Notes under the pieces: model-generated
Told to the model about the DNA's origin: nothing
Database searches by the model: none
What the model saw: the letters and a program-made list of their open reading frames with translations, nothing else
Translations under genes and position numbers: made by a program
Origin: Bryobacteraceae bacterium
GTDB lineage: Bacteria; Acidobacteriota; Terriglobia; Bryobacterales; Bryobacteraceae
DNA: 64,000 nt
Assembly: GCA_019748195.1 (NCBI GenBank)
Contig: JAIEPW010000022.1
Location: 1-64,000, forward strand
Direction: 5' to 3'
Shown here: piece by piece, positions 34,832-54,283 of the stretch
Position numbering within the stretch: position 1 is the first letter of the stretch
How the letters are laid out: the number at the start of each line of letters is the position of its first letter

Positions 34832-35008
34832 AAGCGTCCAATGTATCAGAGGTCCATTCGGCGGGCCAACGACAAGGGGCCTCCTGGGTTTGTTCCGTCG
34901 AAGTCCGCCTGGAACAGATCCTCGAGATCAATGGCCGTTCCCGCGCGCATTCGAGATCTGTAGGGGCCCGGCGTTGTGCGAACGTCTGGATCCGTACGTC
35001 TGGTTCTT

Positions 35009-35980: not shown

Positions 35981-36272
35981 TGCTCACGACCCTTTGAAAG
36001 GTTCGCCAGGAACGTACCAGACTCGTCAACGAGAGGAGCAAAAAGTTGCCAATCGTTGCCCATTTTCCGATAAAGTTCAGGACGTCAATGATGTCCCTGC
36101 TCACACCGATGAAGTCTAGTGCCCTCGTTAGGAGGTGAAGTATGCCGGTCGTAGCGAGCGCCGCACCTTGGACGACAGCATCCCGGACTAGGGGTCGAAC
36201 CTCGGACTTTGCCTGCGACCACCAAGTGTCTTGCGAGATTGTTACCTTCTGCGGGCTGCTTGGAGAGGCCAC
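35973..36272 (-). CDS. Small membrane protein of unknown function
   Basis: 99 residues with two hydrophobic stretches ([19 protein letters not shown] and [20 protein letters not shown]) and a hydrophilic N-terminus containing Trp pairs. No family recognised. First gene of the low-G+C cassette and overlapping the start of the 323-residue membrane protein by eight bases, so the two are probably made together and may interact. The 144 bases to the divergent dehalogenase gene contain no other gene. Confidence 0.6.
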
Positions 36273-36416
36273 TCCAACCTCCCAGAATCAAGGGTCAACG
36301 CTAGCTTCATTGTGGTTTTAGCTTACCTGAAAGTTTGTGAACTCTGCTCCGCGCAGAATAAGACCGCGATCAAGGCCAAGGCAAGGCACTCGTTGTTGAC
36401 GATAGAATCTTGGTTG

Positions 36417-37352
36417 ATGCGCATGCTGGCGTTACTGACCCTCTCGTCCGTCCTTCTCGCCGAGAAACCGCTCCGCACACCGGACGAGCGGTTCCGCGGC
36501 TTGCCCGATTATCCTTTCCGCCCCCATTACGCAACCGTGGAAGGCAAGCGGATGCACTACGTGGACGAAGGCAAGGGCGACGTGGTGCTGATGCTGCACG
36601 GCGAGCCGTCATGGTCGTACCTGTACCGGAAAATCATCCCCGTAGTGGCGCGCGAAGCAAGGGTGATCGCGCCGGACTTGATCGGCTTCGGCAAATCCGA
36701 CAAGCTTCGCGAGAAGAGCGGCTACACCTTTGAAATGCACTTTGCCGCGCTGAAAAGCTTCGTCGAGAAGCGAAAGCTGCGCAACATCACGCTGGTGTGC
36801 CAGGACTGGGGCGGACTGCTGGGGCTGGCGCTGGTGGGTGAAATGCCAGACCGGTTCGCGAGGCTGATCGTGATGAACACCGGCCTGCCCACGGGCGAGA
36901 AGCCAGGTCCGGCGTTTCTGCAGTGGCGAGCCTTTGCCGCGCAGCAGACGGACATGAACGTCGGCGACGTTCTGGAACGCGGAACGGTGTCGAACCTCGG
37001 TCCGGCGGTCCGCGCTGCATACGACGCCCCGTATCCCGACAAGTCGTACAAGGCGGGAGCACACCAGTTCCCGCTGCTGGTGCCTATCTCCAAGGATGAT
37101 CCGGCGATCCCGCGAATGGAGAAGGCGCGCCAGGTGCTCGCGCAATGGAACAAGCCGGCGCTGGTGATGTTCTCCGACAAGGATGCCGTGACCGCGGGAG
37201 GGGACCGCATGTTCCGCGCTCTGCTGCCGACCGCGAAGAATGAGCCCGAAATCGTGATTCGAGACGCCGGGCACTTTCTGCAGGAAGACAAGGGGGAAGA
37301 GATCGCCGGGCACATCGTCGAATTCCTCAAGCGCCGCCCGATTGCGAAATGA
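36417..37352 (+). CDS. Exported haloalkane dehalogenase-like alpha/beta hydrolase
   Basis: 311 residues from the ATG at 36417 (a second ATG two codons later). The first ~16 residues ([15 protein letters not shown]) look like a signal peptide. [12 protein letters not shown] and CQDWGG match the DhlA-like haloalkane dehalogenase group, with the Asp nucleophile and the halide-binding Trp beside it; SDKDAV and AGHFLQED supply acid and base. It would cut carbon-halogen bonds, but related epoxide or ester hydrolases share the motifs. A TAGAAT hexamer (36403-36408) lies just before the start, without a good -35. Its stop overlaps the TonB receptor start by four bases. Confidence 0.8.
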
Positions 37353-39637
37353 GACGCGCGGCCATCGCGCTGCTGGCGTGTGCCGCGCTGGCGCCCGCGG
37401 ACCGTCAATCCGGCGAGCTGCGCATGGCAGTTGCCGATCCCACGGGAGCGGCGCTCGCGGCGCGCGTCGAAGTCGAGAGCGCTATAAACCAGGTCCGCCG
37501 GACCTATGAGACTTCGCCCGAAGGACGCTTGAACATTCCGGGCCTGGCCTTCGGACCTTACCGCGTATCGGTGATCCGCGATGGATTCGCTGCTTCGAGC
37601 TTCTCGTTCGAGATCCGCGGCGAGGTCCCCGTGGAACGCAAAGTCACGCTGGAGCTGCGCGGGATCACCGAACAGGTGACGGTACGCGATTCCGGCACGC
37701 TGCTGGATCCGCACGCCACTGGTCCCGTGTTCCGGCTTGGCTCGGAGGCGATTCACACGCGGCGGGCCAGCCGCCCCGGCCGCGAGATTCTGGACCTGGT
37801 GAACACGCAGCCCGGCTGGCTGTTGGAAGCAAACGGGATCCTGCATCCGCGCGGGTCCGAGTACGACACGCAGTACGTGATGGACGGCATACCGGTGACC
37901 GACAACCGCTCGCCCGGATTCGCTCCGGCGTTCGCGGCGGAATCGACCGAGTCGATGCGCATCTGGACCGCGGGGATCCCGGCGGAATTCGGCCGCAAGC
38001 TGGGGGGCGTAGTCGAGCTGACCACGCGGCGCGATTCCCGGCTGGGCTGGCGCGGATCGGCGGCGCTGGAAGGTGGTAGCTTCGCCAGCCGCAACGGAGC
38101 GATCGGGGGGCAGTACGGCGCGCGCCGCTGGACCGTCTCGCTGGGGGCGAACGGCTTCTTCACCGATCGCTTCCTGGATCCGCCCGCGCCGGAAAACTTC
38201 ACCAACCACGGCTCGGGCGCAGGATTCACCGCCCGCCTGGATACCGAGCCGTCGGATCAGGACCGGGTGCGCTTTTACTTTCATCAAAAGAGATCCGCGT
38301 TTCTGGTGCCGAACGAGCTGTTTCAGCAAACGGCCGGACAACGCCAGGATCGCGCAACAAGGGAGAGCCTGGGTCAAGCAAGTTATCAGCGCACCCTGTC
38401 CGCGAAATGGCTGTTCGACGCGCGTCTGATGGCCCGCGACGTGGACGCGCGGTTGTGGAGCAATCCTTTGGCGACGCCGATCCTGGCTTCGCAGGATCGC
38501 GGCTTCCGCGAGTTGTACTTGAATTCGAGCGCGGCCACCACTCAAGGCCGCCATGCAGTCAAGTTCGGAATTGAGGCAGCCTTCACCAGTGCGCGCGAGT
38601 TGTTCGCTTATCGGATCGCGGATCCGACGTTCTTTGAGGAGGAGTTTCCGCTCGCCTTCCGCTTCCGGGGCCGCCGCCGGGGCAACGAGCAGTCCGCCTA
38701 TGTTCAGGACACCATCCGCCTGGGAAACCTGACCGTGAACGCGGGGCTGCGGTGGGATCGCTACCGGCTGCTGGTGGCTGAAACCGCGTTCAGCCCGCGA
38801 CTGGGGATCGGGTACTATTTGCCCAGAACACGGACGTTGCTCCGCGCCAGCCTTGACCGGGTGTTCACGACGCCGGCGATCGAGAATCTGCTGCTGGCCA
38901 GCTCGCCGGAGGCGCGCAATCTTACCGATGAGACCAGCGGATTGCCGGTGCGGCCGTCGCGCGGAAACTACTTCGAAGCAGGGTTCTCGCAGGCGATCTT
39001 CAGCCGGGTCCGGCTGGACGCGAGCTGGTATCTGCGGCGGCTCCGCAATTACGGCGACGACGAAGTGTTTCTGAACACCGGAGTCAGCTTCCCGATCGCG
39101 TTCGAGCAGGCTCGCGTGCGGGGTTACGAGGTAAAGCTGGAGGTCCCGTCCTGGGGACGCTTTTCGGGATTCGCCAGCTACTCCAATCTGCTGGGAACCG
39201 GATATCTTCCCGTCACCGGCGGATTGTTCCTGGACGACGCCGCCGAACTCTTGGCCCAGGGCAGTTTCCCGATCACGCAGGACCAGCGCAACACGGTGCA
39301 GCTCCGCGGGCGCTGGGATCTCACGCGCCGGGTCTGGGCCGCGGCCGGCTATTGGTACAACAGCGGCCTGCCTTTTGAAGGCGAAGCCCCGGAAACAGGC
39401 GATCCCCGGGTGCTTTCCCAGGTCGACTTCGCGCGGGGCCGCGTGAAGCCGTCCTATTCCTTTGACCTGTCCCTGGGGATCGATTTGTTGCGCGGCGAAC
39501 GCTACCAGGCCACTTTCCAGGTGGATGCCCTCAATGTCGCCGACCGCTTCAACCTCATCAATTTCGCCGGCCTGCTCTCAGGCACGGCGATCGGGCAGCC
39601 GCGCAATGTCGCCGCACGGCTGCGGGTCGCCTTCTAG
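37349..39637 (+). CDS. TonB-dependent outer-membrane receptor with carboxypeptidase-regulatory-like domain
   Basis: 762 residues with signal peptide ([14 protein letters not shown]). Residues ~22-100 form a CarboxypepD_reg-like Ig domain ([16 protein letters not shown]). A plug domain follows ([32 protein letters not shown]), then a ~20-strand beta-barrel with many aromatic-ended strands, ending [11 protein letters not shown] with the expected terminal Phe. It takes up or senses a large substrate by TonB. It is shorter than the ~1100-residue Oar-like receptors of acidobacteria. Coupled to the exported dehalogenase by ATGA, which suggests the two handle a common substrate. Confidence 0.88.
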
Positions 39638-39658
39638 AGCCATCAATTTCGTGAGAAT

Positions 39659-39670
39659 CCGGACGTCCGG
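39659..39670. promoter_or_regulatory. Perfect 12-base palindrome between TonB receptor and TPR-barrel genes
   Basis: ccggacgtccgg is fully self-complementary, followed eight bases later by a TATATC -10-like hexamer (39678-39683). It may be an operator for the 39697-45028 genes. A 12-base palindrome of G+C-rich sequence can occur by chance, so the evidence is modest. Confidence 0.35.
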
Positions 39671-39696
39671 CGCACACTATATCCATACCGGAGGGT

Positions 39697-41703
39697 GTGA
39701 CCTTGCGATGGCTGGTTCTATGGGCCGCGGGAGTTCTGACGGCGCAAACGCCGGACAGCAATTTCGAAGGCCGGTCGGATGCGTATGAGGCGCTGAACCG
39801 GCGCGACTACGACGCGGCGATCGCGGCGTTTCAGTCCGCCATCGCCAAGGAGCCGCGCCACGCTGGCTTGCGCAAGGACCTCGCATACACGCTTCTCAAG
39901 ACGGGCGAGACCGAGGCAGCGCGGGATCAGTTCGCGGAAGCGATGGCGCTGGAACCCGGCGACCTCCACCTGGCGCGCGAGTACGCCTATCTTTGCCACG
40001 AAACCCGGCAGACTCGCATGGCGCGCCGGGTGTTCGAGCGCCTCCGGCAACAGGGCGATGCTGCCGCCGAAGACGCCTATCAGAACATTGATCGGCCGTT
40101 GGCCGAAGGAATCGCGAGGTGGACCCGGGCCGTCGAGCTGGCCCCCGGAAATTACAGCGCGCACGAGGAACTGGCGAAGCTGGCGGAAACGCGGGATGAA
40201 GTCGCGGCGGCGGCGCTGCATTATGAGCATGCCTGGAAACTGCGCCCGGACAAGCGATCCCTGCTGCTGGATCGCGGGCGCATGCTGCGTGAGCTGGGCC
40301 GGGAGCAGGAGGCGTTTGTCACGCTTCTCGCGGCTTCGCGGGCAGCCGAGCCCCGCACCGCGGAGCTTGCCCGGGAACTCCTGCCGGATCGCTACCCGTA
40401 CGTCTATGAGTTCCGGCAAGCGCTGGAGCTCGATCCCGGCAGTGTCGAATTGCGGCGCGAACTCGCGTACCTGCACCTGGAGATGAAGCGGCCGGAGCTT
40501 GCGGAAGCGGAGTTCGAGCAGCTTCTGAAGCTTACGCCGAAGGACCGCCTCAGCCTGGCGCAGCTCGGATTTCTCAAACTTTCGCGCAAGGACTATGAGG
40601 CGGCGAAGCCGCTGCTCGACCGGGTGCTGGAGACCGATGACGACGAAATCGCGGATCGCGTCCGGGAGGCTCTCGGCCTGCCTCGCACGCTGCGCCGCGG
40701 CGATACACCTCGCCGCGATGTGACGGAGGAGGCTCGCGCCATGGCGGCGAAGAGCCTGGAGAAAGGCTACATCCCCGACGCGGTGAAGTATCTGCGAATC
40801 GCCCATGAAAGCGATCCGGTGGACTTCGACGTCATGATGAAGCTCGGCTGGGCCTACAACGTGCTCAAGCAGGATGAGGAAGCCGCGAAGTGGTTCCGGC
40901 TGGCGGGCCGAAGTCCCGATCCGGAGATCGCGCGGCCGGCGTCACGCGCCTATCAGGGGTTGCGGCCGGGCCAATCGCGATTTCGCACCACCGCGTGGGT
41001 TTTCCCGTTCTTCTCCTCGCGCTGGCACAACGTATTCGCCTACGGTCAGGTGAAAACCGAGTTCCGTTTGGGAAAGCTCCCGCTGCGGCCATATCTCTCG
41101 GTCCGGCTGATTGGGGACACGCGAGGCGAACTCGCGCCGGTGGCGGCGGGATTGCCGGCGCAGTACCTGTCGGAAAGCTCATTCATCTTCGCCATCGGCG
41201 TCGCGACCCCGGTGAGGCGGGGCTTCTTCGCGTGGGCCGAAGCCGGCCAGGCGATGCGCTACATCCAGCGCGACGACGTCGGCCGGTTCGTTCCCGATTA
41301 CCGGGGCGGCGTCAGCTACGCCAAGGGCATCGGGAACATGATGGGAAGCGAATCCCGGGGGTGGTTCGCGGAAACAAACGAAGACCTGGTTTACGTCAGC
41401 CGCTTCCAGCATGACGTGCTGCTGTACAGCCAGAATCGCGGAGGCTATACGCTGCCCTCGGCGGGCGGCTTCGATTCACAGGTGTTCCTTCACGCCAACG
41501 CGACCGTCGACCTGAAGCAGCAATATTGGGGAAACCTGGTGGAGGCCGGACCTGGCATCCGGTTCCGGTTCCCCGGCACACTCCGCCCCGTGCTGTTTTC
41601 CGCCAGTCTGCTGAGGGGGGCGTTTCTGAAGAACATCGGCAATCCGGGCCGCCCCAACTACTGGGATGCTCGCGTGGGGTTATGGTATGCGTTTACTCGC
41701 TAG
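39697..41703 (+). CDS. TPR protein with C-terminal outer-membrane beta-barrel-like domain
   Basis: 668 residues with a signal peptide (WLVLWAAGVLTAQ). The GTG at 39697 is only three bases after GGAGG; the TTG two codons later has better spacing and gives MRWLVLWAAG. Residues ~30-430 are tetratricopeptide repeats (AYEALNRRDYDAAIAAFQSA and others). The last ~230 residues are strand-rich with aromatic residues (AWVFPFFSSRWHNVFAYGQ, GYTLPSAGGFDSQVFLHAN) and end RVGLWYAFTR like a barrel. TPR plus barrel is the layout of PgaA/BcsC/NfrA-type exporters, so polysaccharide export is the leading guess. Confidence 0.75.
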   Translation: MTLRWLVLWAAGVLTAQTPDSNFEGRSDAYEALNRRDYDAAIAAFQSAIAKEPRHAGLRKDLAYTLLKTGETEAARDQFAEAMALEPGDLHLAREYAYLCHETRQTRMARRVFERLRQQGDAAAEDAYQNIDRPLAEGIARWTRAVELAPGNYSAHEELAKLAETRDEVAAAALHYEHAWKLRPDKRSLLLDRGRMLRELGREQEAFVTLLAASRAAEPRTAELARELLPDRYPYVYEFRQALELDPGSVELRRELAYLHLEMKRPELAEAEFEQLLKLTPKDRLSLAQLGFLKLSRKDYEAAKPLLDRVLETDDDEIADRVREALGLPRTLRRGDTPRRDVTEEARAMAAKSLEKGYIPDAVKYLRIAHESDPVDFDVMMKLGWAYNVLKQDEEAAKWFRLAGRSPDPEIARPASRAYQGLRPGQSRFRTTAWVFPFFSSRWHNVFAYGQVKTEFRLGKLPLRPYLSVRLIGDTRGELAPVAAGLPAQYLSESSFIFAIGVATPVRRGFFAWAEAGQAMRYIQRDDVGRFVPDYRGGVSYAKGIGNMMGSESRGWFAETNEDLVYVSRFQHDVLLYSQNRGGYTLPSAGGFDSQVFLHANATVDLKQQYWGNLVEAGPGIRFRFPGTLRPVLFSASLLRGAFLKNIGNPGRPNYWDARVGLWYAFTR

Positions 41704-43648
41704 TGTTCTGTGGGCCGCGGCGCTATCCGCCGCCGACCTCTCCTTTCATGTCGCGGGCGACGAAGCCGCCGGGTGGTCCAAGGTACTTGCGGCGGGCGGT
41801 TTTCAACCGGCGGAGTCCAGCGCGAGGCTGATCGTCGTCGGCGGATCGAGTGCGTCACAACCGGCGGAGTGGATGCGTCGCCTGGAAGCCGGCGCGGTGA
41901 TCCTGATTGAGGGGGACTCGCCCTTGGCGCGGGCGCTGGGCATCCAGCCCTCCGGCAGGCGGATTCGGGTGCAAAGCGCGATCGAGGCGCGTGCGCCGAA
42001 GCTGCACATCGTGTGGGAACCCGCGGCGGCGATTGTCGAATCGAGGCTGCCGGCCGCCGCGCGCGTGTTCCTGCGCGAGCGCTGGACCGGTGCGCCGCTG
42101 CTGGTAGGTATCCGAGTGGGCGGCGGAGCGGCGTTGTGGGCCGCCTGCCCGCCCGGTCGCGAAGGCTATGAACGCTTTCCCTATATCCTTCAGGCGCTCG
42201 CCGATCTGGGCGTCGCGCCGCCGTTCCGCTCCAGGCGGTTGTGGGCGTTTTTCGATTCCTCCTATCGCCTGCGTGCCGACATCGAGTACATCGCGGATCG
42301 CTGGCAACGCGCCGGGATCGGAGCCATTCATGTCGCCGCCTGGCATTACTGGGAAGCGGATGCGGAGCGTGATGCGTATTTGAAACGCGTGATCGCCGCA
42401 TGCCACCGGCGGGCGATCCTGGTGTATGCCTGGATCGAGTTTCCGCACGTCAGCGAGAAGTTCTGGCAGGATCATCCGGAGTGGCGGGAGCAGACCGCGG
42501 TCCTGCAGGACGCTCACCTGGACTGGCGGAAGTTGATGAACCTCGCCAATCCGCAAGCTTCAGCCGCCGCGGAGTCCGGGCTGCGGGACCTGCTGGACCG
42601 GTTCGATTGGGACGGGGTGAACCTGGCGGAGTTGTACTTCGAATCGCTGGAAGGCGCGGCGAACCCGGCCCGCTTCACGCCGATGAACAGTGACGTCCGC
42701 CAGGCGTATCGCGGCTTGACGGGCGTGGATCCGCGGGATCTGTTTCGTCCTGGCTCCCCGCCGGAGGCGATAGGCAGGTTCCTCGATTTTCGGGCGTCGC
42801 TGGCGCACCGGCTGCAGAAGGAATGGCTCTTGCGGCTGGACGAGATCCGGAAATCCAAGCCGGACCTGGACCTTGTCCTGACGCATATCGACGACCGGTT
42901 CGATACGCGGATGAAAGAACTATTGGGGGCGGACACCTCGCGCACCCTGCCTCTGCTGGATCAGCATGACTTCACGTTTCTGATCGAGGATCCGGCCACG
43001 GTATGGCACCTGGGGCCGGCGCGATATCCGGAGATCGCCTCGCGATACGCGGCGTCGGCGCCCGCCGCCGCCAAGCTGGCGATCGACATCAACATCGTTG
43101 AGCGGTATCAGGATGTGTATCCCACCAAGCAGCAGACGGGAACCGAACTGATGCAACTGGTGCAATTGGCGGCACGGGCATTTCCGCGGGTCGCGCTGTA
43201 CTTCGAGAGCTCGCTGGCGCCGGTGGACCTGGAATGGCTTAGCTCGGCCGCGGCCGGGGTGCAAAAGGCACAGGCCGCGGGGGCAAAGCTCGTCATCGAC
43301 TCGCCGCGGGGCGTAGGCTTGCGGTGGTCCGGACCGGCCCTGGTGGACGGCAGGCCCTGGCCCGTGCGCGACGACGATACGCTCTGGCTGCCTCCCGGGC
43401 AGCATTCCGTCGAGCCGTCGGCGCAGCCGATCCCTTCCCGCATCCTGGGCTTCTCCGGAGACCTGGAAAGCGCGGCGGTGTCGAAGGGCGGCGTCGAGTT
43501 CGGATATCGCAGTTCCTCGCGGGCGATTCTGATCCTGGACAAGCTCCCTCGTCGCATCGAAATCGATGGCGAGCTTGCGTCCCCGCGCATCGAAGGCACT
43601 TGCATCTATCTCCCGCGCGGCCAGCACTTCGTGCTGCTGGTTGACTGA
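41687..43648 (+). CDS. Exported TIM-barrel glycoside hydrolase-like protein
   Basis: 653 residues from the ATG at 41687, giving MRLLASVLWAAALSAA as signal peptide; overlaps the TPR-barrel gene by 17 bases. Residues ~30-180 resemble a glutamine-amidotransferase-like domain. From RRLWAFFDSSYRLRADIEYI onward there is a GHL10/DUF187-type barrel (AIHVAAWHYWEADAERDAYL, LVYAWIEFPHVSEKFW, DWDGVNLAELYFE) with Glu and Asp at strand ends; it somewhat recalls the C-terminal domain of PgaB. Action on an exported polysaccharide is inferred from the coupled TPR-barrel protein. The family is not certain. Confidence 0.7.
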   Translation: MRLLASVLWAAALSAADLSFHVAGDEAAGWSKVLAAGGFQPAESSARLIVVGGSSASQPAEWMRRLEAGAVILIEGDSPLARALGIQPSGRRIRVQSAIEARAPKLHIVWEPAAAIVESRLPAAARVFLRERWTGAPLLVGIRVGGGAALWAACPPGREGYERFPYILQALADLGVAPPFRSRRLWAFFDSSYRLRADIEYIADRWQRAGIGAIHVAAWHYWEADAERDAYLKRVIAACHRRAILVYAWIEFPHVSEKFWQDHPEWREQTAVLQDAHLDWRKLMNLANPQASAAAESGLRDLLDRFDWDGVNLAELYFESLEGAANPARFTPMNSDVRQAYRGLTGVDPRDLFRPGSPPEAIGRFLDFRASLAHRLQKEWLLRLDEIRKSKPDLDLVLTHIDDRFDTRMKELLGADTSRTLPLLDQHDFTFLIEDPATVWHLGPARYPEIASRYAASAPAAAKLAIDINIVERYQDVYPTKQQTGTELMQLVQLAARAFPRVALYFESSLAPVDLEWLSSAAAGVQKAQAAGAKLVIDSPRGVGLRWSGPALVDGRPWPVRDDDTLWLPPGQHSVEPSAQPIPSRILGFSGDLESAAVSKGGVEFGYRSSSRAILILDKLPRRIEIDGELASPRIEGTCIYLPRGQHFVLLVD

Positions 43649-43672
43649 ATCGAAACAGGCGCTGGAAGTATA

Positions 43673-45028
43673 ATGGCCGCCATGATCGAACTCGACGTTC
43701 AATCCCGGCGCAAGAAGAATGACGGGCCCGAATCGGAGCATCCGTTTCGCATCCTGCTTTTAGGCGATTTCGGATGCGAGACTGCCAGGCCGGTCTTCGT
43801 CGATCGAGACAACGTAAACGACCTGCCGGGCAAGCTTGGCGTTCATCTCGACCTGCCGGCCGGACGCATCGAGTTCAAGGAAATGGACGACTTTCGTCCA
43901 GAGCAGCTCTATCGCGGCTTCCGTATGTTTCGCGACCTCCAGGAGGCCCGCAAGCGCATGGAGGATCCGCAGACCTTCCGCAAGGTCACGGCGGAGCCGG
44001 TGCAGGCCCCGGCCTCCATTCTCAGCTCCGGCAGCTTGCTGGACCAGATCGCGGCGGAGACCGAAGGCCGCCCCGCCGCCGACGCGGATCCGTTCCAGCA
44101 ATATTTGAAGAAGCTGGTGTCCCCGTATCTGGTGGACCGCCCCAACCCCAAGCAGTTGGAGATCGTTGCGAAGATCGAGACCGCGATCGGAAATGAGATG
44201 CGGAACCTGCTGCATCGCCCCGCCTTCCAGAGTCTGGAGGCCGCGTGGCGAGCCGTGGAGATGCTCGTCCGCGATGTGGAGACCAGCCCCGATCTGAAAA
44301 TCTACCTGTTCAGCCTTCCCCGCAAAGCGCTGGCGAAAGATCTGCTTGAAACGGCCGATTTGCGCACCACCGCCCTGTATAAGGTCCTTGTGGAGCAGAC
44401 GGTCCGAACACCCGGCGCGCATCCCTGGGCCGCCGTCGCGGGGGACTATACGTTCGGCGATAACACTCCGGATATCGAGCTTCTGGGACGCATCGCGCTG
44501 CTTGCCGGCGCGGCCGGCACTCCCTTCTTCACCGGCGGCACTCCGGAAGTCAATGCCTGGAAGCAACCGTCGGCGGAATGGAAGGAGTTGACCGGAATCC
44601 CCGAAGCGTCTCACTTGGGCATCGCGCTGCCGCGATTCCTGCTGCGGCTGCCTTATGGCGCCAAGACGGACGCCGTGGAGACGTTCGAATTCGAGGAGAT
44701 TCCCGGCAAGCCCGAGCATGAGGATTACCTGTGGGGCAACTCGGCCTTCCTCTGCGCGTACCTGCTGGCGCAAACCTTCACCGAGCAGGGGTGGCAAATG
44801 GAGCCCGGCGAGATCCTGGACGTAAACGGCCTGCCGCTGCACGTGTACAAGGACGGCGGCGAAGCAGTCACCAAGCCGTGCGCCGAGGTTCTGATGCTGC
44901 AGACCACCTGCGAGGACCTGATGGAAAAGGGCCTGATGCCGGTGGTGTCGATGAAAGATTCCGACCGAGTGCGCCTGGCGGGCTTCCGCGGCATCAACGG
45001 AAAAAAAATCGCCGGGCGCTGGAACTAG
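43673..45028 (+). CDS. Orphan type VI sheath protein: TssB-like and TssC-like domains in one chain
   Basis: 451 residues. Residues ~20-110 have the TssB/VipA pattern (PFRILLLGDFG, then IEFKEMDDFRPEQLYRGFRM and a D-P-x-T-F motif). From QYLKKLVSPYLVDRPNPKQL on it follows TssC/VipB (LHRPAFQSLEAAWRAVEMLV, GALPRF-like GIALPRFLLRLPYG, WGNSAFLCAYLLAQTF). The C-terminus (DSDRVRLAGFRGINGKKIAG) ends like TssC. These form the contractile sheath of type VI systems as two separate proteins normally. No other secretion genes are visible nearby; it follows the GH-like gene by 24 bases on the same strand. A TATAAT overlaps the ATG; an internal ATG (43682) is an alternative start. Confidence 0.8.
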   Translation: MAAMIELDVQSRRKKNDGPESEHPFRILLLGDFGCETARPVFVDRDNVNDLPGKLGVHLDLPAGRIEFKEMDDFRPEQLYRGFRMFRDLQEARKRMEDPQTFRKVTAEPVQAPASILSSGSLLDQIAAETEGRPAADADPFQQYLKKLVSPYLVDRPNPKQLEIVAKIETAIGNEMRNLLHRPAFQSLEAAWRAVEMLVRDVETSPDLKIYLFSLPRKALAKDLLETADLRTTALYKVLVEQTVRTPGAHPWAAVAGDYTFGDNTPDIELLGRIALLAGAAGTPFFTGGTPEVNAWKQPSAEWKELTGIPEASHLGIALPRFLLRLPYGAKTDAVETFEFEEIPGKPEHEDYLWGNSAFLCAYLLAQTFTEQGWQMEPGEILDVNGLPLHVYKDGGEAVTKPCAEVLMLQTTCEDLMEKGLMPVVSMKDSDRVRLAGFRGINGKKIAGRWN

Positions 45029-45029
45029 A

Positions 45030-48000
45030 TCAGCGGACGGAAATCTGAGTCGTCTTGGCGTCCACTCCCTCGATGGACAGCGTCGCCGTCTGCAGGCCGG
45101 TTCCGATGTTCGGCGGAACCACGACGTTCACCTGGTAGAGGCCCGCGTTGCCTGGGGCAAGCCCGCTGAACTGTACCGGAGCGTTTTGCCCGCCGATGGT
45201 CACCGTGGGGGCGGACGTGGTGCGAACCAGCCGATCCGTGGGAGCGGCTTCGCCCGAGGCCTGTGGTTCGGCCACGGTTCCCAGGCCGTTCACGAAGAAC
45301 TGGATCACGCGGCCGCGTTGCACTGGATTCGCCGCGCTGACCACCGCATTCGCTTCGTCGCGAGCCGCCGCTACCCGGTTCGATCCGTCCTGATATTCGA
45401 AGAAGCCAGGCGACACGCGCTGGATAGGGACCCGGAACAACGCCGTTTGCGAATCGCCGAGCGAAACCTTCACCTGCACCGAGGTAGATCCGGCGAGCTC
45501 CCACGGAATTTGCACGTTTACCTGGTTGTCGCGAACAAAATGCAAGCGTCCGGGGACGCTGACACCGCGGGTGGTGTCATCGAAGCTCACGCTTACGCCG
45601 GAAAGCGATAACGGAAGATACGGCGTGGAGAATGTGCGCGAGGCTTCGCTCAAGCCGGCGCCGAAGATCGTCATATACGACCCCGGGGCCAGTCCGGGTC
45701 CGAGTTCGAAGCTGGCCGCATTCACGATCCCGTTGTTGTTGATTGCCGGGACGCGGCGTGCTCTGCCGTCGAAGGTGAACTGCAATCCGCCTGCCTGGAC
45801 GACGATCTCATCTTCGCCGGGCGTATTCAGGTTCAGAATGGTTGCCGCGCCGATGCCCAGGGCGTCGGTGGTGGGGGTCGCGCTTTCGATTGCATCACGC
45901 GGCGCGAACTGCACGTTCGCGTTGGGAATGGGAAGTCCGAACTGATCCACAAGTTTGAAACTCAGCACCGTGCGGCGTCCCGCGTCGCCCAGATACGGCA
46001 GCGCCCGCGTGGACAGGATGTTCGCGGCGCGATTGTCGGACACGGCGTACCAGAATGGAACGCGCAGGGGCGAGGCGCTTCCCGTAATCAGGATCGCGCC
46101 TTCATACTGTCCCGCCGCGGGTACGCTGCCCTGCAGGCGAACCTGAACTTCCGTCGATTGGCCGGCGTTCAGGGAAACCGAGCCGCTCGATAGCGTGAGA
46201 TTCGCCCGCGAGTCCGGATCGCGGCGGTCCACCGCCAGCGTCAGGTTCAGACTCTGCGTTCCGATATTAGTCAGCCGCAGGGTCCGGTTTTGATTCACCT
46301 GCTGCACGCGGCCGAACGAGATCGCCGACGGCTCCACGGTGACGTTCGTCTGGACCGCGGCCCCCGCATCCAGGCGGCCCGCGCCGACGGCGGCGACCCG
46401 CGCGCGCCCCCGCCCGCCCTGCGCGTCGAAGTCGTCCACGGCGGCATTCGCGGTATTCACCACCGCGCTCTTCAATTGGGCCGCCGTCAGGCCGGGATAC
46501 CGCTGCTTCACCAGCGCGACCGCGCCCGCCACCAGCGCCGCGGAGAAGCTGGTTCCGTTCGCGGCGGACCATCCCGCCGGCGACCAGAGGTCTCCGTTCG
46601 GGTCGTAAGTTTGTGTCGCGAAAAGGAGGTCCGTACCCGGCGCGACCAGCTCCGGCTTGATCTCCAAAGCGTTGATATTCGGCCCTCGGGATGAAAACGA
46701 GGCCACCGTGTTGCTTTCCACGTCGCGCAGTTCGACAAACGCGGGGTCGATGGTCACCTGCAATCCGGGATTGGATTGCAGCAGGTTCCGCAAGGCCTGC
46801 CCGGCCGAAGTCCGGATCTGCACCGAGGGGATCCCGGTATTTGCGACCCCTTGCATGCGGAAGAGGAACTCGGAGTTCTGGCGGTACAGAATCACGGCCA
46901 CCGCGCCGGCGTTGGCGGCATTGGTGACTTTGGTAATCGTAAGGCAATCGCCGCCCTCCACCAGCGCGAATACGCCTTCCAGGGAGCCCACGGGTAGCGG
47001 CGAGCATGCGCGTGCGTTCCCCGGCGCCAGTCGAAGTCCCGCCGTCAGCGGTCCGGCGGGCAGAGGCCCGTCGCTGAAGTAGGCGTACGCGGGACCCAAG
47101 GCTTCCGGCGGGTTGCCCGCGCCCCGGACCGTCACGGTCTGGAAAAGGGCGTGCGCGTTCGAGGTCGCTCCCACGGTGATCGCCGACGGCGCGGAACCGG
47201 GCGAGTTGATGGAGTTCAGAGCCGGGAACCGCAGACCAAGATCTCCGTCATTACCCGCGGAAGTAACCACCGCCAATCCCGCGCGGGCGGCGTTCTCCAC
47301 CGCCACCGCCATGGGATCGCAGAAATCGGTGGCGAAGCTGGGGCAATCGGGTTGACGGCGATCGCTGAGCGTCCACTCCGCGGGATTCGTACCAAAGCTG
47401 AGTAAGGCGACGTCCATGCCGTCCGCCGCCGCGTCACTGAGGGCGCGGAGCACCGCGTCGATGTAGGTTGTGTCGTTCACCCCGGGCGATCCGAAGATTT
47501 TATAGTTGCCGACCCAGGCCTTGGGTGCGATGCCGGAGATGCGGCCGAGCGGGGACTCGGCCGGCGCTCCCGCCGCGATCGACGCGAGCGCGGTTCCCTT
47601 GCCCACCCGGTCGCGTGGCGACAGGTCGTCCGGCCGCGTGCTTTCCAGCCGCCCGTCGAACCGGGCCACGATATCGACATAGCTGCGCGCCACAATCACT
47701 TTCGAATTCGTAAAAGCGGCATCGCCGCGGGGAAACCCGGTGGGGACCGTCAGCGAGGGGTCGCGCAGCATGGGATGGTTGTGGTCGACGCCGGTGTCCA
47801 GGATGGCGATCCTGGCGCCCGCGCCCGCGTTCTGCTGCCCGCCGAGCGCGCTCCAGGCAGCGGATGCGTTGGTCAGATCCAGAGCGCGATTCAGATGTCT
47901 CTTCAGGGGCGCCAGGCGGAACACGGCGCGCACGCCGGCGATCTCGCGGAGCGAATCGCCCGAGGCGGCCTCGCCTTCGGCCACAACCACGTTGACCAAG

Positions 48001-48245
48001 GTCGATTCCGAACTCACCAGCCGCAGTCCCCGGCGCGTCAGCTCCCCGGCCAGAGCCCGATGCCGGTCTTCCAGCGCGGCGCGCCGCACCGCCGCCTGGT
48101 CCGTGAGCCAGTCTTTCCGATCCGGGATGGCCGACGCCAGGGGCGGCTCCTTCAGCCACAGCAGATAGCGTTGGGGCCGCTCCGCGGCCGGCGCGCCCGC
48201 GGTCCAAGCAAGGAACAAAAGGAAAGAACAGACTCTGGGGGTCAT
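45030..48245 (-). CDS. Subtilisin-like (S8) exported protein with lost catalytic His and Solibacter-type C-terminus
   Basis: 1071 residues with signal peptide (VCSFLLFLAWTAGAPAAE). Inhibitor-I9-like propeptide, then the S8 domain: Asp150 in AILDTGVDHNHP and Ser566 in NGTSFSAALVAG are kept, but the HGTH motif reads RVGKGTALASIAAG, with Lys216 (AAG) where the catalytic His belongs. A PA-type insert (residues ~390-510) interrupts the domain, as in C5a-peptidase-like enzymes. After an Ig-like part, the last ~230 residues (VNAASFELGPGLAPGSYMTI, then HFVRDNQVNVQIPWELAG) match the TIGR03437 Solibacter C-terminal layout. Peptidase activity is doubtful. Confidence 0.87.
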   Translation of the reverse strand: MTPRVCSFLLFLAWTAGAPAAERPQRYLLWLKEPPLASAIPDRKDWLTDQAAVRRAALEDRHRALAGELTRRGLRLVSSESTLVNVVVAEGEAASGDSLREIAGVRAVFRLAPLKRHLNRALDLTNASAAWSALGGQQNAGAGARIAILDTGVDHNHPMLRDPSLTVPTGFPRGDAAFTNSKVIVARSYVDIVARFDGRLESTRPDDLSPRDRVGKGTALASIAAGAPAESPLGRISGIAPKAWVGNYKIFGSPGVNDTTYIDAVLRALSDAAADGMDVALLSFGTNPAEWTLSDRRQPDCPSFATDFCDPMAVAVENAARAGLAVVTSAGNDGDLGLRFPALNSINSPGSAPSAITVGATSNAHALFQTVTVRGAGNPPEALGPAYAYFSDGPLPAGPLTAGLRLAPGNARACSPLPVGSLEGVFALVEGGDCLTITKVTNAANAGAVAVILYRQNSEFLFRMQGVANTGIPSVQIRTSAGQALRNLLQSNPGLQVTIDPAFVELRDVESNTVASFSSRGPNINALEIKPELVAPGTDLLFATQTYDPNGDLWSPAGWSAANGTSFSAALVAGAVALVKQRYPGLTAAQLKSAVVNTANAAVDDFDAQGGRGRARVAAVGAGRLDAGAAVQTNVTVEPSAISFGRVQQVNQNRTLRLTNIGTQSLNLTLAVDRRDPDSRANLTLSSGSVSLNAGQSTEVQVRLQGSVPAAGQYEGAILITGSASPLRVPFWYAVSDNRAANILSTRALPYLGDAGRRTVLSFKLVDQFGLPIPNANVQFAPRDAIESATPTTDALGIGAATILNLNTPGEDEIVVQAGGLQFTFDGRARRVPAINNNGIVNAASFELGPGLAPGSYMTIFGAGLSEASRTFSTPYLPLSLSGVSVSFDDTTRGVSVPGRLHFVRDNQVNVQIPWELAGSTSVQVKVSLGDSQTALFRVPIQRVSPGFFEYQDGSNRVAAARDEANAVVSAANPVQRGRVIQFFVNGLGTVAEPQASGEAAPTDRLVRTTSAPTVTIGGQNAPVQFSGLAPGNAGLYQVNVVVPPNIGTGLQTATLSIEGVDAKTTQISVR

Positions 48246-48309
48246 CTGGGGAAGTGGACGCGGCGGCCCGGCAAAGCGTTTCCCGCCAGCGGCGCAGCCG
48301 GCGCCGAAT

Positions 48310-48338
48310 TCGACAATCTTAACTCAAGTTGCTACAAT
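48310..48338 (+). promoter_or_regulatory. Sigma70-type promoter of the Tudor-like small protein gene
   Basis: TCGACA (48310-48315) and TACAAT (48333-48338), each one base off consensus, are separated by exactly 17 bases. The predicted start near 48345 leaves a leader of about 12 bases including the AAGAAGGA ribosome-binding site before the ATG at 48357. Confidence 0.7.
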
Positions 48339-48356
48339 CGCTTAAGAAGGATTTAC

Positions 48357-48599
48357 ATGGCCAGCAAAGCACCCTTCGCGACGGGCGCACAAGTGGAACA
48401 CCCTAAGTTTGGTCTCGGGTCCGTTCTTTCGTGCACGGACGAGCACATTACCATTAAGTTCGACGACCACGGCGAAAAAAAATTCGTCCTCTCCATTGTT
48501 CTCCCGAACTTGAAGAAGAGCGATCGCCAGCCTCCCGTCGAGAAGCGCCGCGCCACACGCAAGAAAGCAACGCCCGCGCCGGCGGCTCCAGCGACGTAA
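48357..48599 (+). CDS. Stand-alone Tudor-like/DUF3553-type small protein
   Basis: 80 residues from the ATG at 48357; a longer in-frame run from 47775 is antisense to the S8 gene. Residues 7-55 (FATGAQVEHPKFGLGSVLSC, DEHITIKFDDHGEKKFVL) closely follow the Tudor-like C-terminal domain of UvrD/PcrA helicases (DUF3553-like), which binds RNA polymerase. The C-terminal ~25 residues are a Lys/Arg/Pro/Ala-rich tail, likely nucleic-acid contacting. No helicase gene is adjacent. It has its own strong promoter, divergent from the S8 gene. Confidence 0.8.
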   Translation: MASKAPFATGAQVEHPKFGLGSVLSCTDEHITIKFDDHGEKKFVLSIVLPNLKKSDRQPPVEKRRATRKKATPAPAAPAT

Positions 48600-48648
48600 C
48601 CACCTTTCGGCAATACTCGACGGCGCGTTGTGGCAGAATCTCAGAAAT

Positions 48649-49734
48649 ATGAGATTCTCCCTGCTCACGCTCGTCGCTTTCTGTGCCTCCGCCGCCGGAC
48701 CGCTCGACAAGTTCGACATTCCCGCCAAAATGAAGCAGTACAAGGTGCCAGGCGTCAGCGTGGCCATCGCGGATGGGGGCAGAATCGTGTGGTCGCAGGG
48801 TTTCGGGGAGCGGGAGGCGGGCTCCGGAAAGCCGGTCACCGTGGACACCCTCTTTCAGGCGGCGTCGATCTCCAAGCCCGTGGCCGCAACCGGAATGCTC
48901 CGCCTGGTGGAGAAAAAGAAGCTTGACCTGGATGAGGACGTCAATCGCAAGTTGAAGTCCTGGCGCTTGCCCGACAACGAATTCACCACGCATCAGAAAG
49001 TGACGCTGCGCCGGATCGCCAGCCATGGAGCGGGGCTGACGGTGCACGGATTTCCGGGCTACGAGGCGGGAGTTCCGCTGCCGACATTGGCGGATATCCT
49101 GGACGGCCGGAAGCCGCCCGCGAACACGGCGGCGGTCCGGGTCGATATGGCGCCCGGTTCCCAGTGGCGGTATTCGGGGGGCGGCACGACGCTGATGCAG
49201 CTCCTGATTCAGGATGTCACCGGCAAGTCGTTTCCGGACTTCATGCGCGACATGGTGCTGAAGCCCGCGCAAATGAAGCAGAGCAGCTACCAGCAGCCGT
49301 TGCCCGGGAATCGCGGTTCCTTTGCCGCCAGCGGTCACGATCGCGAGGGAAAACCGGTCAAAGGGAAGTGGCATGTGTATCCCGAAATGGCCGCGGCTGG
49401 GCTTTGGACCACTCCCGCCGATCTTTGCCGCTGGGCTTTGGAGATCCAACGCGCCTATGACGGCAAGTCGAAGAAGCTCCTGTCGCAGGCGATCGCCCGC
49501 CAGATGCTGACGCGGCAAACGGGCGACTTCGGCCTGGGGCCTGGACTTCAGGGATCGGGCGACGCGCTACGCTTCGGCCATGGCGGATCCAATGCGGGAT
49601 TCCGGTCCCAGTTGGTCGCCAATCTAAAGGGTCAGGCCGTCGCGGTGATGACCAACGGAGACCTGGGCGGGAAACTGGCGGGGGAAATCGTCGACCTCGT
49701 GATCGCGGAGTACAAGTGGGCTCCGGCCCGGTAG
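48649..49734 (+). CDS. Exported serine hydrolase, class C beta-lactamase fold
   Basis: 361 residues from the ATG at 48649, giving a signal peptide (FSLLTLVAFCASAAG). Catalytic pattern: AASISKPVAATG (SxxK), YSGGGTTL (the Tyr of YxN, with Gly instead of Asn) and FGHGGSNAGF (HxG for KTG). That set fits esterases, D-aminopeptidases or transpeptidase-like S12 enzymes more than true beta-lactamases. It acts in the periplasm; substrate unknown. It follows the Tudor-like gene by 49 bases on the same strand. Confidence 0.85.
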   Translation: MRFSLLTLVAFCASAAGPLDKFDIPAKMKQYKVPGVSVAIADGGRIVWSQGFGEREAGSGKPVTVDTLFQAASISKPVAATGMLRLVEKKKLDLDEDVNRKLKSWRLPDNEFTTHQKVTLRRIASHGAGLTVHGFPGYEAGVPLPTLADILDGRKPPANTAAVRVDMAPGSQWRYSGGGTTLMQLLIQDVTGKSFPDFMRDMVLKPAQMKQSSYQQPLPGNRGSFAASGHDREGKPVKGKWHVYPEMAAAGLWTTPADLCRWALEIQRAYDGKSKKLLSQAIARQMLTRQTGDFGLGPGLQGSGDALRFGHGGSNAGFRSQLVANLKGQAVAVMTNGDLGGKLAGEIVDLVIAEYKWAPAR

Positions 49735-49787
49735 GAGCGTGGAAGCAAGGCCCTCCGGCGGTCGCGTTGAGGGTGGACAATCAGTGC

Positions 49788-50183
49788 ATGGGCACACCAG
49801 ATCCCCGGGTCGACCTCGCCTACAGCCGTACGGACATGGCAAATTACCGCACGCAGCTTGCCCTGGACCGGACAACTCTGGCCTGGATCCGCACCACACT
49901 CACGATGGCCAGCTTCGGGTTCGCGCTGGTCGGCTTCTTCCACACCATGCGCGGCGCCGATGGTTCGAATGAGCGGCTGTACCGTACCGCGGTGGAGATC
50001 GGCATCGCGCTGATCGCCGTGGGCGCCGCGGCGATGCTGGCCGCGGGTATTTCGCACTGGAGGATGATCGGCAGGCTCCGGCGGAATGAATCCCTGCAGG
50101 TTTCACGCTGGCCGCTCAGCATCTCGCTGGGGATCATGGTCTTGGTGATTACACTGGGCGGCCTCTGGCGCATCCTGTCCTAG
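49788..50183 (+). CDS. DUF202 (YidH-like) membrane protein
   Basis: 131 residues from the ATG at 49788, with GAGGGTGGA about 10 bases upstream; a GTG five codons earlier is also in frame. The N-terminal signature ALDRTTLAWIRTTLTMASFG is typical of DUF202; three transmembrane helices are evident. Function of the family is unknown. It lies 53 bases downstream of the serine hydrolase gene and nine bases from the convergent GT-C-like gene. Confidence 0.85.
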   Translation: MGTPDPRVDLAYSRTDMANYRTQLALDRTTLAWIRTTLTMASFGFALVGFFHTMRGADGSNERLYRTAVEIGIALIAVGAAAMLAAGISHWRMIGRLRRNESLQVSRWPLSISLGIMVLVITLGGLWRILS

Positions 50184-50192
50184 GACTCGCTC

Positions 50193-51734
50193 TCAGGGCA
50201 CCAGGCGGTAGCCGATCAGACCGGTCCCCCACCTCACATCGGCCAGGTAAACTCCCGACGCGCTCATCGGGGTCAACTTGTCATAAAGGCTCCGGTACAC
50301 CGGCGAATCCCGGCCAATCACCCAGATCACCTGTGGACTCCGGCCGGCCGGCACGTCCACGGGATCGCCTCGCAGAACGCGGACCAGACGCACTCTCCGC
50401 CAGACGGAGGCGTGCGGACGGTTGCCGATATCCAGCGTGTCGAGCAAGAGCGTGATGGGCTGGTTGGGAAGGTAATACGAGATCTTGCGCCAATTGACGG
50501 GCGAACGGTTCCAGAAGATCGGCGCGGACGGGTGTTCGCGCGTCAGGTGTTCCGTAGTGCGGATGACCGCGCGCGTATCGACATCCACATCGTGAATCAG
50601 CGGCCATGCGGTTTCCCACGCGGCGTCGAAAAGCTGCTTGCGCAAATGGACCAGTTCGCCCCCGATCCCGACCCTGGGCGCCGCCAGATAAAGCAGCCGT
50701 GGAGACCAGAACCAAAGGACGTTCAGAGTCACCACGAAAGCCAACGCGGCGGGAACCAGCGCGGGAAAACGGTGGCGCATGGCGGCCAAGGTTGCGCCGC
50801 CGAGAATGCAGCTTGCCGCGATTACGCCCAGCCCGTGTCCTGGAGAGCCGGCGTGCACCAACCCCTGAAAAACGAGGGTCGGGACGGCCCACAAGGCGAA
50901 GAACGCAATCGGGAACGCGGGTCGCGCAAAGTACCGGAAGCCGATCCATCCCCCGATGGCAAAGCCGTTCCAGACCAGCATTTTGACGAGCATTCGCAGG
51001 TACGCGTCGCCGCCGCCCCCATAGACGGGCGACGCATCGCGCGACTGGTCGCGCAGATAATCGCGGAAAACCAGGAACAAAGCCTCCGTGCTTTCAAATC
51101 GCGAGGCGAGGAACGCGAGCCACGCCGCCGCGCAGAGCGCGCCCAGCGCGAGCGCGCCCAGAATGGCGCCGGAGTGCTTCGCCCCCCGCGCGATCGAGAC
51201 CACCGCCAGAGGCATCAGAAGCGCCAACAACTCCGGCCGGTAACCGGAGCCGATTCCGAGCGCCGCCGCCGCGATCCATGCCCACCGCGATTCGCCGGTC
51301 CAGGCCCGCCAGCAGGCATAAGCCACCAGGAGATTCACGGCGGCGATCCACACGCGAATCGTGGAGGTAGAGATCTCGAATAGGAACGAGGGATTCACCG
51401 CGAGCAGCAGCGCCGCGATCCACCCCGATGCGACGCTCTGGAACATCCGGCAGGCCAGCAGAAACGCGAGCCACAGGCTGAGCGCCGCCCCCAGGATCAC
51501 GCCGATGGTGAATGCCGCCCCGGCTTCCAGCCCCAGCAGACGCTGAATCATCTGCGACTGCAGAACAAACAACGGATATCCGGGAGGCTGCGGGATCAGA
51601 TTGCGAGGATCGAAGCGCTCCAGCGCCATCGCGAAGTTGATGCAGTCCTCAGAGAACAGGTGCGGAGGACGGAGCCCCACGGCGGATACACCGGCAGCCA
51701 GCAGGCACAGCATGGCCGGGAGGAGGCGGGGCAT
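50193..51734 (-). CDS. GT-C-like polytopic membrane protein (putative glycosyltransferase)
   Basis: 513 residues with about ten transmembrane helices. The first loop contains FSEDCINFAMALERF, with the acidic residues (Glu-Asp) expected in GT39-type enzymes, and QPPGYPLF, a block common in this group. A C-terminal soluble domain of ~150 residues (WNRSPVNWRKISYYLPNQPI) follows. Probably transfers a sugar from a polyprenyl phosphate at the periplasmic face. Not closely similar to the GT-C protein at 29180-30700. Divergent from the acyl-CoA carboxylase gene. Confidence 0.75.
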   Translation of the reverse strand: MPRLLPAMLCLLAAGVSAVGLRPPHLFSEDCINFAMALERFDPRNLIPQPPGYPLFVLQSQMIQRLLGLEAGAAFTIGVILGAALSLWLAFLLACRMFQSVASGWIAALLLAVNPSFLFEISTSTIRVWIAAVNLLVAYACWRAWTGESRWAWIAAAALGIGSGYRPELLALLMPLAVVSIARGAKHSGAILGALALGALCAAAWLAFLASRFESTEALFLVFRDYLRDQSRDASPVYGGGGDAYLRMLVKMLVWNGFAIGGWIGFRYFARPAFPIAFFALWAVPTLVFQGLVHAGSPGHGLGVIAASCILGGATLAAMRHRFPALVPAALAFVVTLNVLWFWSPRLLYLAAPRVGIGGELVHLRKQLFDAAWETAWPLIHDVDVDTRAVIRTTEHLTREHPSAPIFWNRSPVNWRKISYYLPNQPITLLLDTLDIGNRPHASVWRRVRLVRVLRGDPVDVPAGRSPQVIWVIGRDSPVYRSLYDKLTPMSASGVYLADVRWGTGLIGYRLVP

Positions 51735-51778
51735 TGGAAGAACGAGGATAACACCGGTTGAGGTTATTCTGGAACTTC

Positions 51779-53377: not shown

Positions 53378-53382
53378 TCTTC

Positions 53383-54273: not shown

Positions 54274-54283
54274 GGCGCAACCG

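What the first reader, a model, noticed from the sequence alone, without database searches (positions are those of the whole stretch)
43673..45028. Orphan TssB-TssC fusion
Both type VI sheath subunits appear in one 451-residue chain, with no TssA, TssD, TssE, TssK or ClpV nearby; the gene follows the exported GH gene. A fused sheath subunit without a system could be a domesticated contractile-sheath or a scaffold protein. The TssB-like part is short (~90 residues).
Basis: partly seen in the sequence, partly recalled or inferred. Interest (0 to 1): 0.6.

Follow-up and report, generated by a model that had tools for sequence, protein, structure and literature searches.

The report
Truncated, fused type VI sheath protein
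This gene makes a single protein built from both halves of the contractile sheath of the bacterial type VI "harpoon" but without the piece that lets sheath rings stack; it belongs to an overlooked family found in many phyla, nearly always in genomes with type VI sheath genes, and may cap or regulate the sheath.

Summary
In detail: window 43673-45028 encodes one 451-aa chain, a shortened TssB (residues 19-101) joined to the N-terminal part of TssC (113-451). It lacks TssC's C-terminal gpW/gp25-like domain, which accepts the next sheath ring. "Without a system" does not hold: the genome has separate tssB and tssC, and TssA, D-I, K (twice), L, M, on other contigs. Nor is it a degraded copy: 79 of 80 retrieved relatives, from eight phyla, share the architecture, and 73 of 79 stop at the same point. 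In one tree they form a single clade apart from TssC and rhizobial ImpD. Of 151 genomes searched, 40 carry the fusion and all 40 have TssC; of the 85 without TssC, one (G131) holds only a small fragment. A longer relative, TssCL, was described in 2022 as limited to Alphaproteobacteria and recent; here it nests inside the wider family and additionally carries a tethered second TssB. Best explanation: a T6SS accessory protein, a sheath pseudo-subunit that cannot be built upon, hence a distal cap or terminator (inferred, about 0.4); baseplate adaptor or ClpV-linked regulator are rivals. New variant of a known kind.

The parts
43673..45028 (+). TssB-TssC fusion gene, 451 aa, lacking the TssC C-terminal (VipB_2) domain; an alternative start ATG lies at 43682
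43673..43726 (+). N-terminal arm (residues 1-18), low model confidence over 1-12; possible remnant of the TssB N-terminal donor strand (inferred)
43727..43975 (+). TssB-like segment, residues 19-101 (= own TssB 31-136 of 175)
44009..45001 (+). TssC-like segment, residues 113-443 (= own TssC 15-373 of 498); starts with an LLDQIA helix at the place of TssC's ClpV-recognised helix
45014..45022 (+). Conserved GxW (residues 448-450) next to the stop, where TssC would continue into VipB_2
41666..43648 (+). Upstream GHL-like gene, 24 bp before the fusion; the order TPR gene-GHL gene-fusion is kept in L042, L064, L133
39697..41703 (+). TPR-repeat gene, first of the conserved three-gene order

Best explanation
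Shown by sequence: the gene encodes a member of one widespread clade of T6SS-associated proteins in which TssB and the first three quarters of TssC are one chain and TssC's C-terminal domain is absent. Shown by prediction: the chain folds into a sheath-subunit core. Inferred: it works in trans for the T6SS encoded elsewhere in the genome, as a sheath pseudo-subunit. In a sheath, each subunit sends strands to the domain 1 of subunits in the ring nearer the baseplate, and its own domain 1 receives strands from the next ring. The fusion has no domain 1, so nothing can be stacked on it; it can sit only on top of the last ring or off the sheath. The mechanism I think most likely is a distal cap or terminator (or length and disassembly control) of the sheath, perhaps touching ClpV through its LLD helix. 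The T6SS link is about 0.9 likely; the cap mechanism about 0.4.
For: T6SS dependence: all 40 fusion genomes of 151 have TssC; counting the G131 fragment, 40 of 41 (hypergeometric 8.7e-18, ignoring kinship); 46 of 80 loci have another T6SS gene within 10 kb, 10 of 80 with the fusion between tssH and tssI and 19 of 80 with both tssB and tssC in the same locus; of the 34 loci without, 28 genomes have TssC elsewhere. Fold: AlphaFold2 pLDDT 89.6, pTM 0.87; aligns to VipB 61-398 at rmsd 2.1 and, from about residue 20 to 451, to single-chain phage/PVC/pyocin sheaths with Z up to 17. Missing domain: no VipB_2 match in the 29 members of A1, nor in the 6 members with a C-terminal extension; 73 of 79 proteins end within 15 residues of the profile match. 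Stacking logic: PMC5807055, PMC10457771, PMC5813253, passages read. Tether: in Leisingera and Roseibium a second near-complete TssB is joined to the fusion by an acidic linker of about 820 or 430 aa, which places the fusion at the sheath.
Against: No experiment or complex model shows binding to a sheath. The fusion also lacks the TssC C-terminal donor strand, so at best one of two ring-linking strands remains, and that arm is only suggested (30 of 73 match a pattern I wrote after looking, 4.5 expected by shuffling). The own TssA is of the ImpA_N+VasJ kind, the domain make-up of V. cholerae TssA1, itself a cap candidate in PMC5813253, so a second cap might be redundant. 26 of 66 TssC-bearing genomes lack the fusion, and 6 of 34 genomes of orphan loci show no VipB_2 (completeness not given). 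Gene slots near tssK, tssI and tssKLM fit a baseplate role as well. The window copy sits in an unrelated-looking operon.
Confidence: 0.42

Rival explanations
1. Baseplate-side adaptor: the sheath-like chain docks at the baseplate or membrane complex (TssK, VgrG, TssE/F/G) and helps start the sheath or load cargo.
For: The gene lies between tssH and tssI in 10 of 80 loci, and in others beside tssK or after tssK-L-M (for example L044, L046, L047, L110).
Against: Lacking domain 1, it could not hand on the ring-to-ring connection if placed in the first ring (stacking scheme from passages of PMC5813253 and PMC10457771). Gene neighbourhood alone is weak in T6SS clusters, where all parts are close.
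Confidence: 0.2
2. Soluble regulator of sheath turnover: a TssBC decoy or chaperone that binds ClpV, TagJ or free TssB/TssC and tunes assembly or recycling.
For: An LLDxxL-type helix motif lies at the start of the TssC part in 49 of 73 members (shuffled expectation 3.2), against 25 of 27 TssC; the VipB motif LLDEIM binds ClpV (PMC4239648, section 18 read). In 16 of 80 loci the nearest labelled T6SS gene on one side is tssH/clpV.
Against: The motif is not universal, and the window copy has LLDQIA, which fails the last position of the pattern I used. A decoy would not need the conserved fused sheath core or the GxW end.
Confidence: 0.2
3. T6SS-independent, domesticated structural protein acting with the TPR and GHL-like genes upstream.
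For: The three-gene order TPR-GHL-fusion is kept in the window, L042, L064 and L133 at 39-51% identity to the window with gaps of 10-33 bp; in 10 other Acidobacteriota loci an mnmG-like gene follows the fusion (gap under 100 bp in 8, about 1 kb in 2), with parA- and parB-like genes after it in 8. Six of 34 orphan-locus genomes show no VipB_2 match (completeness not given).
Against: In 151 genomes no complete or contig-cut fusion occurs without TssC; the only trace is the G131 fragment next to a short TssK-like frame. Many relatives lie in T6SS clusters.
Confidence: 0.08
4. Degraded copy of tssB-tssC with no function.
For: Truncated at the TssC end; a full tssB and tssC pair exists on C82.
Against: Open frame; core residues kept; the same architecture and end point in relatives across eight phyla; one clade.
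Confidence: 0.02

Closest known systems
TssCL of roseobacter T6SS clusters (PMC9515649, 2022; passages and section 12 read)
   Same: One chain with VipA (PF05591) and VipB (PF05943) domains in genomes that keep separate tssB and tssC; the Leisingera and Roseibium versions examined here also have no VipB_2 match; nested in the same clade.
   Different: TssCL is 1,684 aa in the paper (1565 and 1167 aa in the two full frames here), with an extra near-complete TssB copy and a long acidic linker. The window protein is the stand-alone core, 451 aa, away from the T6SS cluster and from another phylum. The paper reports no TssCL outside Alphaproteobacteria and suggests a recent origin.
TssC/VipB and TssB/VipA, the T6SS sheath subunits
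   Same: Homologous cores; predicted fold matches VipB 61-398 at rmsd 2.1.
   Different: Fused in one chain; TssC 374-498 (holding the gpW/gp25-like domain) and TssB 137-175 have no counterpart in the profile comparison; scores below both NCBIfam equivalog cut-offs.
ImpD / TssC40 (Atu4340), second TssC-like protein of rhizobia, needed for Hcp secretion (PMC3702570, passages read)
   Same: A second TssC-like protein beside a normal TssB/TssC pair.
   Different: Two rhizobial ImpD have VipB and VipB_2 and no VipA; they fall outside the fusion clade.
Single-chain contractile sheath proteins of phages, pyocins, PVC/AFP
   Same: One-chain sheath core aligned from about residue 20 to 451, Z about 13-17.
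   Different: 7-15% identity; those sheaths stack through a C-terminal domain (PMC10457771 for phage XM1); no PHROG match up to E 0.01.

Membership tests
TssC (TIGR03355 / VipB) | Curated whole-protein equivalog score | tested here: not met
   188.6 bits against cut-off 271.5; four relatives scanned are also under it (148.3-246.7)
TssC (TIGR03355 / VipB) | VipB N-terminal domain PF05943 | tested here: met
   E 4.1e-56; 29 of 29 in A1
TssC (TIGR03355 / VipB) | C-terminal gpW/gp25-like domain PF18945 (ring stacking) | tested here: not met
   No match for P0001 up to E 1; not among the 3 families matched by any of the 29 members; none in the 8 proteins
TssB (TIGR03358 / VipA) | Curated whole-protein equivalog score | tested here: not met
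   19.9 bits against cut-off 97.25; of four relatives only the tethered Roseibium form passes (202.8), through its extra TssB copy
ImpD / TssC40 | TssC-like with VipB_2 and without a TssB part | tested here: not met
   Two rhizobial ImpD have VipB and VipB_2, no VipA; the window protein is the reverse; separate in the tree
TssCL (PMC9515649) | VipA and VipB domains in one chain, with separate tssB and tssC in the genome | tested here: met
   (the VipA match of the window copy alone is just under Pfam's cut-off)
TssCL (PMC9515649) | Second, near-complete TssB domain and very long chain | tested here: not met
   451 aa with one TssB-like part
TssCL (PMC9515649) | Encoded inside the T6SS cluster | tested here: not met
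   No other T6SS gene in the window; T6SS on other contigs
TssB-TssC fusion family (clade defined here) | One clade with the TssCL core, apart from TssC and ImpD | tested here: met
   80 rows on one side of a branch, SH-aLRT 99, quick method, no bootstrap; TssCL rows nested
Functional T6SS part | Needed for, or bound to, the T6SS | not testable with these tools
   Needs experiments; only co-occurrence was tested

The most novel reading that the evidence does not exclude
The family is an unrecognised, phylum-wide T6SS component: a dedicated sheath terminator made by re-fusing TssB and TssC into a phage-like single chain and deleting the ring-acceptor domain, so that it docks on the last ring and stops growth. 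In Roseobacters it was further tethered to a sheath-competent TssB by a long acidic linker.
Probability: 0.33. Interest if true: 0.75.

Novelty: new variant of a known kind. Interest (0 to 1): 0.56.

Why it matters
It shows that a protein reported from Alphaproteobacteria as a recent fusion belongs to a broad family, present in 40 of the 66 TssC-bearing genomes examined around this organism. The plasmid records listed annotate its relatives as the sheath large subunit, which can distort sheath counts and TssBC trees. Its missing domain gives a clear, testable prediction about what happens at the distal end of the T6SS sheath, whose composition was left open in V. cholerae (PMC5813253).

Tried and rejected
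Orphan sheath without a T6SS: rejected, the genome has a near-full set. TssJ was not searched for.

ImpD/TssC40 identity: my first lead, rejected on domain content and tree.

Degraded copy: rejected. Phage origin: no PHROG match.

Rows dropped before the count of 40 fusion genomes: G011, G012, G028 (C2) and G054 have a row spanning both parts with a stop inside; each lies beside a VipB_2 match, so I took them as adjacent tssB-tssC genes. G028 is counted for its other locus. Rows that cover only the TssB or only the TssC part were not counted either; the table was cut at the weak end ("more matches are not listed"). Two of the 40, G034 and G045, are fragments at contig ends. G131 was first overlooked because its row was in the cut part; searches show a 38-residue piece of the fusion's C-terminus and, just before it, a 135-aa TssK-like frame. 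In one search I had counted five members with C-terminal extensions; the recount gives six (L138 added).

The search for related loci with the single protein found nothing; with the alignment it gave 80 loci. The C-terminal tails of the six were suspected to be VipB_2; none matched at E 1. Paper searches for the fusion under several names gave nothing on it, by organism, listed PMC9515649; one search found TssCL in that one paper only. In the structure second look a family not listed is not excluded. One search (tandem repeats, 35000-55000) found one short array at 51130-51161.

Full report
What is there. Window 43673-45028 (+) is one open frame of 451 codons. Pfam finds VipB (TssC N-terminal part) at 164-437 with E 4.1e-56 and a weak VipA (TssB) match at 66-102, E 1.4e-4, just under its cut-off. 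NCBIfam matches the TssC equivalog only over profile positions 52-343 of 473, and both equivalog scores are below cut-off. With a 73-row alignment the picture is clear: residues 19-101 align to the genome's own TssB 31-136 of 175 and residues 113-443 to its own TssC 15-373 of 498. The last 125 residues of TssC and the last 39 of TssB have no counterpart there.

Surroundings. The genome (5.83 Mb, 154 contigs, completeness 99.67 as listed) does have the system: contig C82 carries tssI, tssH, tssG, tssF, tssE, tssA, tagJ, hcp, tssC and tssB; TssK lies on C30 and C147, TssM and TssL on C147. TssJ was not searched. The fusion gene follows, by 24 bp, a GHL-like gene and a TPR gene; that three-gene order recurs in L042, L064 and L133 at 39-51% identity. 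In ten other Acidobacteriota loci a gene of the mnmG cluster (one member checked by Pfam) follows the fusion, within 100 bp in eight and after about 1 kb in L091 and L095; parA- and parB-like genes follow in eight. The stand-alone sites are therefore kept within lineages.

The family. A search of 151 genomes (own and 150 relatives) with the single protein found many relatives. Of these 80 loci, 79 give one frame holding both parts; the other, L127, is cut by its contig end. Of the 79, 73 end within 15 residues of a profile match that reaches the last 20 positions; six (L114, L129, L134, L136, L138, L141) run on by 91-140 residues, without a VipB_2 match. By record name the 79 fall in eight named phyla, with 1 unassigned: Acidobacteriota 38, Pseudomonadota 12, Planctomycetota 10, Thermodesulfobacteriota 7, Myxococcota 5, Nitrospirota 3, Gemmatimonadota 2, Verrucomicrobiota 1; most are MAGs, and records titled only "Deltaproteobacteria" are counted under Myxococcota. 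All 29 members of alignment A1 match both VipB and VipA, and none VipB_2. A GxW motif lies within six residues of the end in 57 of 73.

Link to T6SS. 46 of 80 loci have another T6SS gene within 10 kb by blastp at 1e-6, kinase and phosphatase hits not counted; in one of them, L142, the only one is a PAAR hit. The fusion lies between tssH and tssI in 10 loci and beside tssH alone in 6; 19 loci hold both tssB and tssC, for example L066, L079 and L088. In the 151 genomes VipB_2, the mark of a true TssC, is in 66; the fusion is in 40 (G034 and G045 only as fragments at contig ends). All 40 are among the 66; 26 of the 66 lack it. Of the 85 genomes without VipB_2, one, G131, has a 38-residue piece of the fusion's C-terminus (E 5.7e-8), just after a 135-aa TssK-like frame, which looks like what is left of a T6SS. 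Counting it, 40 of 41 carriers have TssC (hypergeometric 8.7e-18; kinship ignored). For the 34 loci without a nearby T6SS gene, 28 genomes have VipB_2 elsewhere and 6 do not, completeness not given.

Relation to known proteins. ImpD/TssC40 was the first lead: in Agrobacterium it is needed for Hcp secretion and is not redundant with TssC41 (PMC3702570, passages). But two rhizobial ImpD proteins have VipB plus VipB_2 and no VipA, and they fall outside the fusion clade. In a quick maximum-likelihood tree of the TssC part, 80 fusions form one side of a branch with SH-aLRT 99 against 32 TssC and 2 ImpD. The one direct precedent found is TssCL (PMC9515649, passages and section 12): a roseobacter protein with two VipA domains and one VipB domain, reported as absent outside Alphaproteobacteria and thought recent. 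In my second quick tree the three tethered or long forms (L056, L136, L141; L141 is cut at its contig start) form one group (99) inside the fusion clade, next to planctomycete forms without the extra TssB. So the fusion itself is older and wider; what looks recent is the added TssB copy. In Leisingera that copy (residues 1-166) is 81% identical to the TssB of the same cluster, and about 820 acidic residues (33% D+E) join it to the fusion core; in Roseibium the linker is about 430 residues. The annotated Leisingera CDS starts at 18276, while the open frame begins at 17013.

Structure. AlphaFold2 on the 73-row alignment gives pLDDT 89.6 and pTM 0.87, with pLDDT under 50 at residues 1-12 and 111-120. 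Foldseek's ten matches at E 0.001 or better are nine T6SS sheath chains and one chain of a Streptomyces contractile system. The second look gives Z 31.3 to 5n8n_B (rmsd 5.7), Z 29.6 and rmsd 2.1 over 293 residues to VipB 61-398 of 3j9g, and Z about 13-17 for single-chain sheaths of PVC, AFP, pyocin and phages from about residue 20 to 451. The fused chain thus looks like a one-chain sheath subunit without the C-terminal domain.

How it may work. In passages read, the handshake sheet of domain 1 is made of two TssC strands plus donor strands from a neighbouring TssC and a TssB (PMC5807055); [quoted passage not shown] in phage XM1 the C-terminal domain of the lower ring is the platform for the upper ring (PMC10457771). 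Without that domain the fusion cannot carry a further ring. Position on the distal end, or off the sheath, follows; a cap is my preferred reading. Support for a remaining N-terminal donor strand is weak: 30 of 73 match a pattern written after looking, 4.5 expected. A ClpV-type helix motif is present in 49 of 73 (3.2 expected) and in 25 of 27 TssC; the window copy has LLDQIA, which fails the last position of my pattern. VipB's LLDEIM motif binds ClpV (PMC4239648, section 18). Against the cap: the own TssA has ImpA_N and VasJ domains, as does V. cholerae TssA1, itself a cap candidate in PMC5813253; 26 TssC-bearing genomes do without the fusion; and no interaction was tested.

Verdict. It is a stand-alone member of a wide TssB-TssC fusion family whose only published relative, in the library searched, is TssCL. 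I call it a new variant of a known kind, with a testable but unproven cap mechanism.

Noticed in passing
L056:17013-21710 (Leisingera thetidis plasmid pBMJM1_3): Open frame of 1565 aa: second TssB copy, about 820-aa acidic linker with repeated LxxLL-like motifs (12 against 1.5 expected by shuffling), then the fusion core. The annotated CDS starts late, at 18276, and loses the TssB copy.
   Followed up: partly
L136:8201-11704 (Roseibium litorale): Tethered form, 1167 aa, between tssH and tssI; its acidic tail ends much like Leisingera's. Whether a separate tssB exists was not seen, because the locus starts inside tssC.
   Followed up: partly
L146:968-1614 (genome G131): A 135-aa TssK-like frame followed by a 38-residue piece of the fusion's C-terminus, in a genome without a VipB_2 match: apparently remnants of a T6SS.
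   Followed up: partly
G000:C30:3174-4451 and G000:C147:127127-128422: Two TssK genes in one genome; loci L046 and L050 and L076, L087, L108, L118, L126 also show two TssK frames (L046 and L108 are the same record).
   Followed up: no
L084, L089, L090, L091, L093, L094, L095, L096, L100, L123: Acidobacteriota fusion genes followed by an mnmG-like gene, in eight of ten with parA- and parB-like genes after it: a kept chromosomal site.
   Followed up: partly
window 39697-43648: A TPR gene and a GHL-like gene, conserved with the fusion in four genomes, with no evident T6SS role; possibly polysaccharide-related (guess).
   Followed up: partly
L057:35268-37367 (Eleftheria terrae plasmid): A row of six annotated RebB-family R-body genes about 13.5 kb from the fusion, on the same plasmid stretch as the T6SS cluster.
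   Followed up: no
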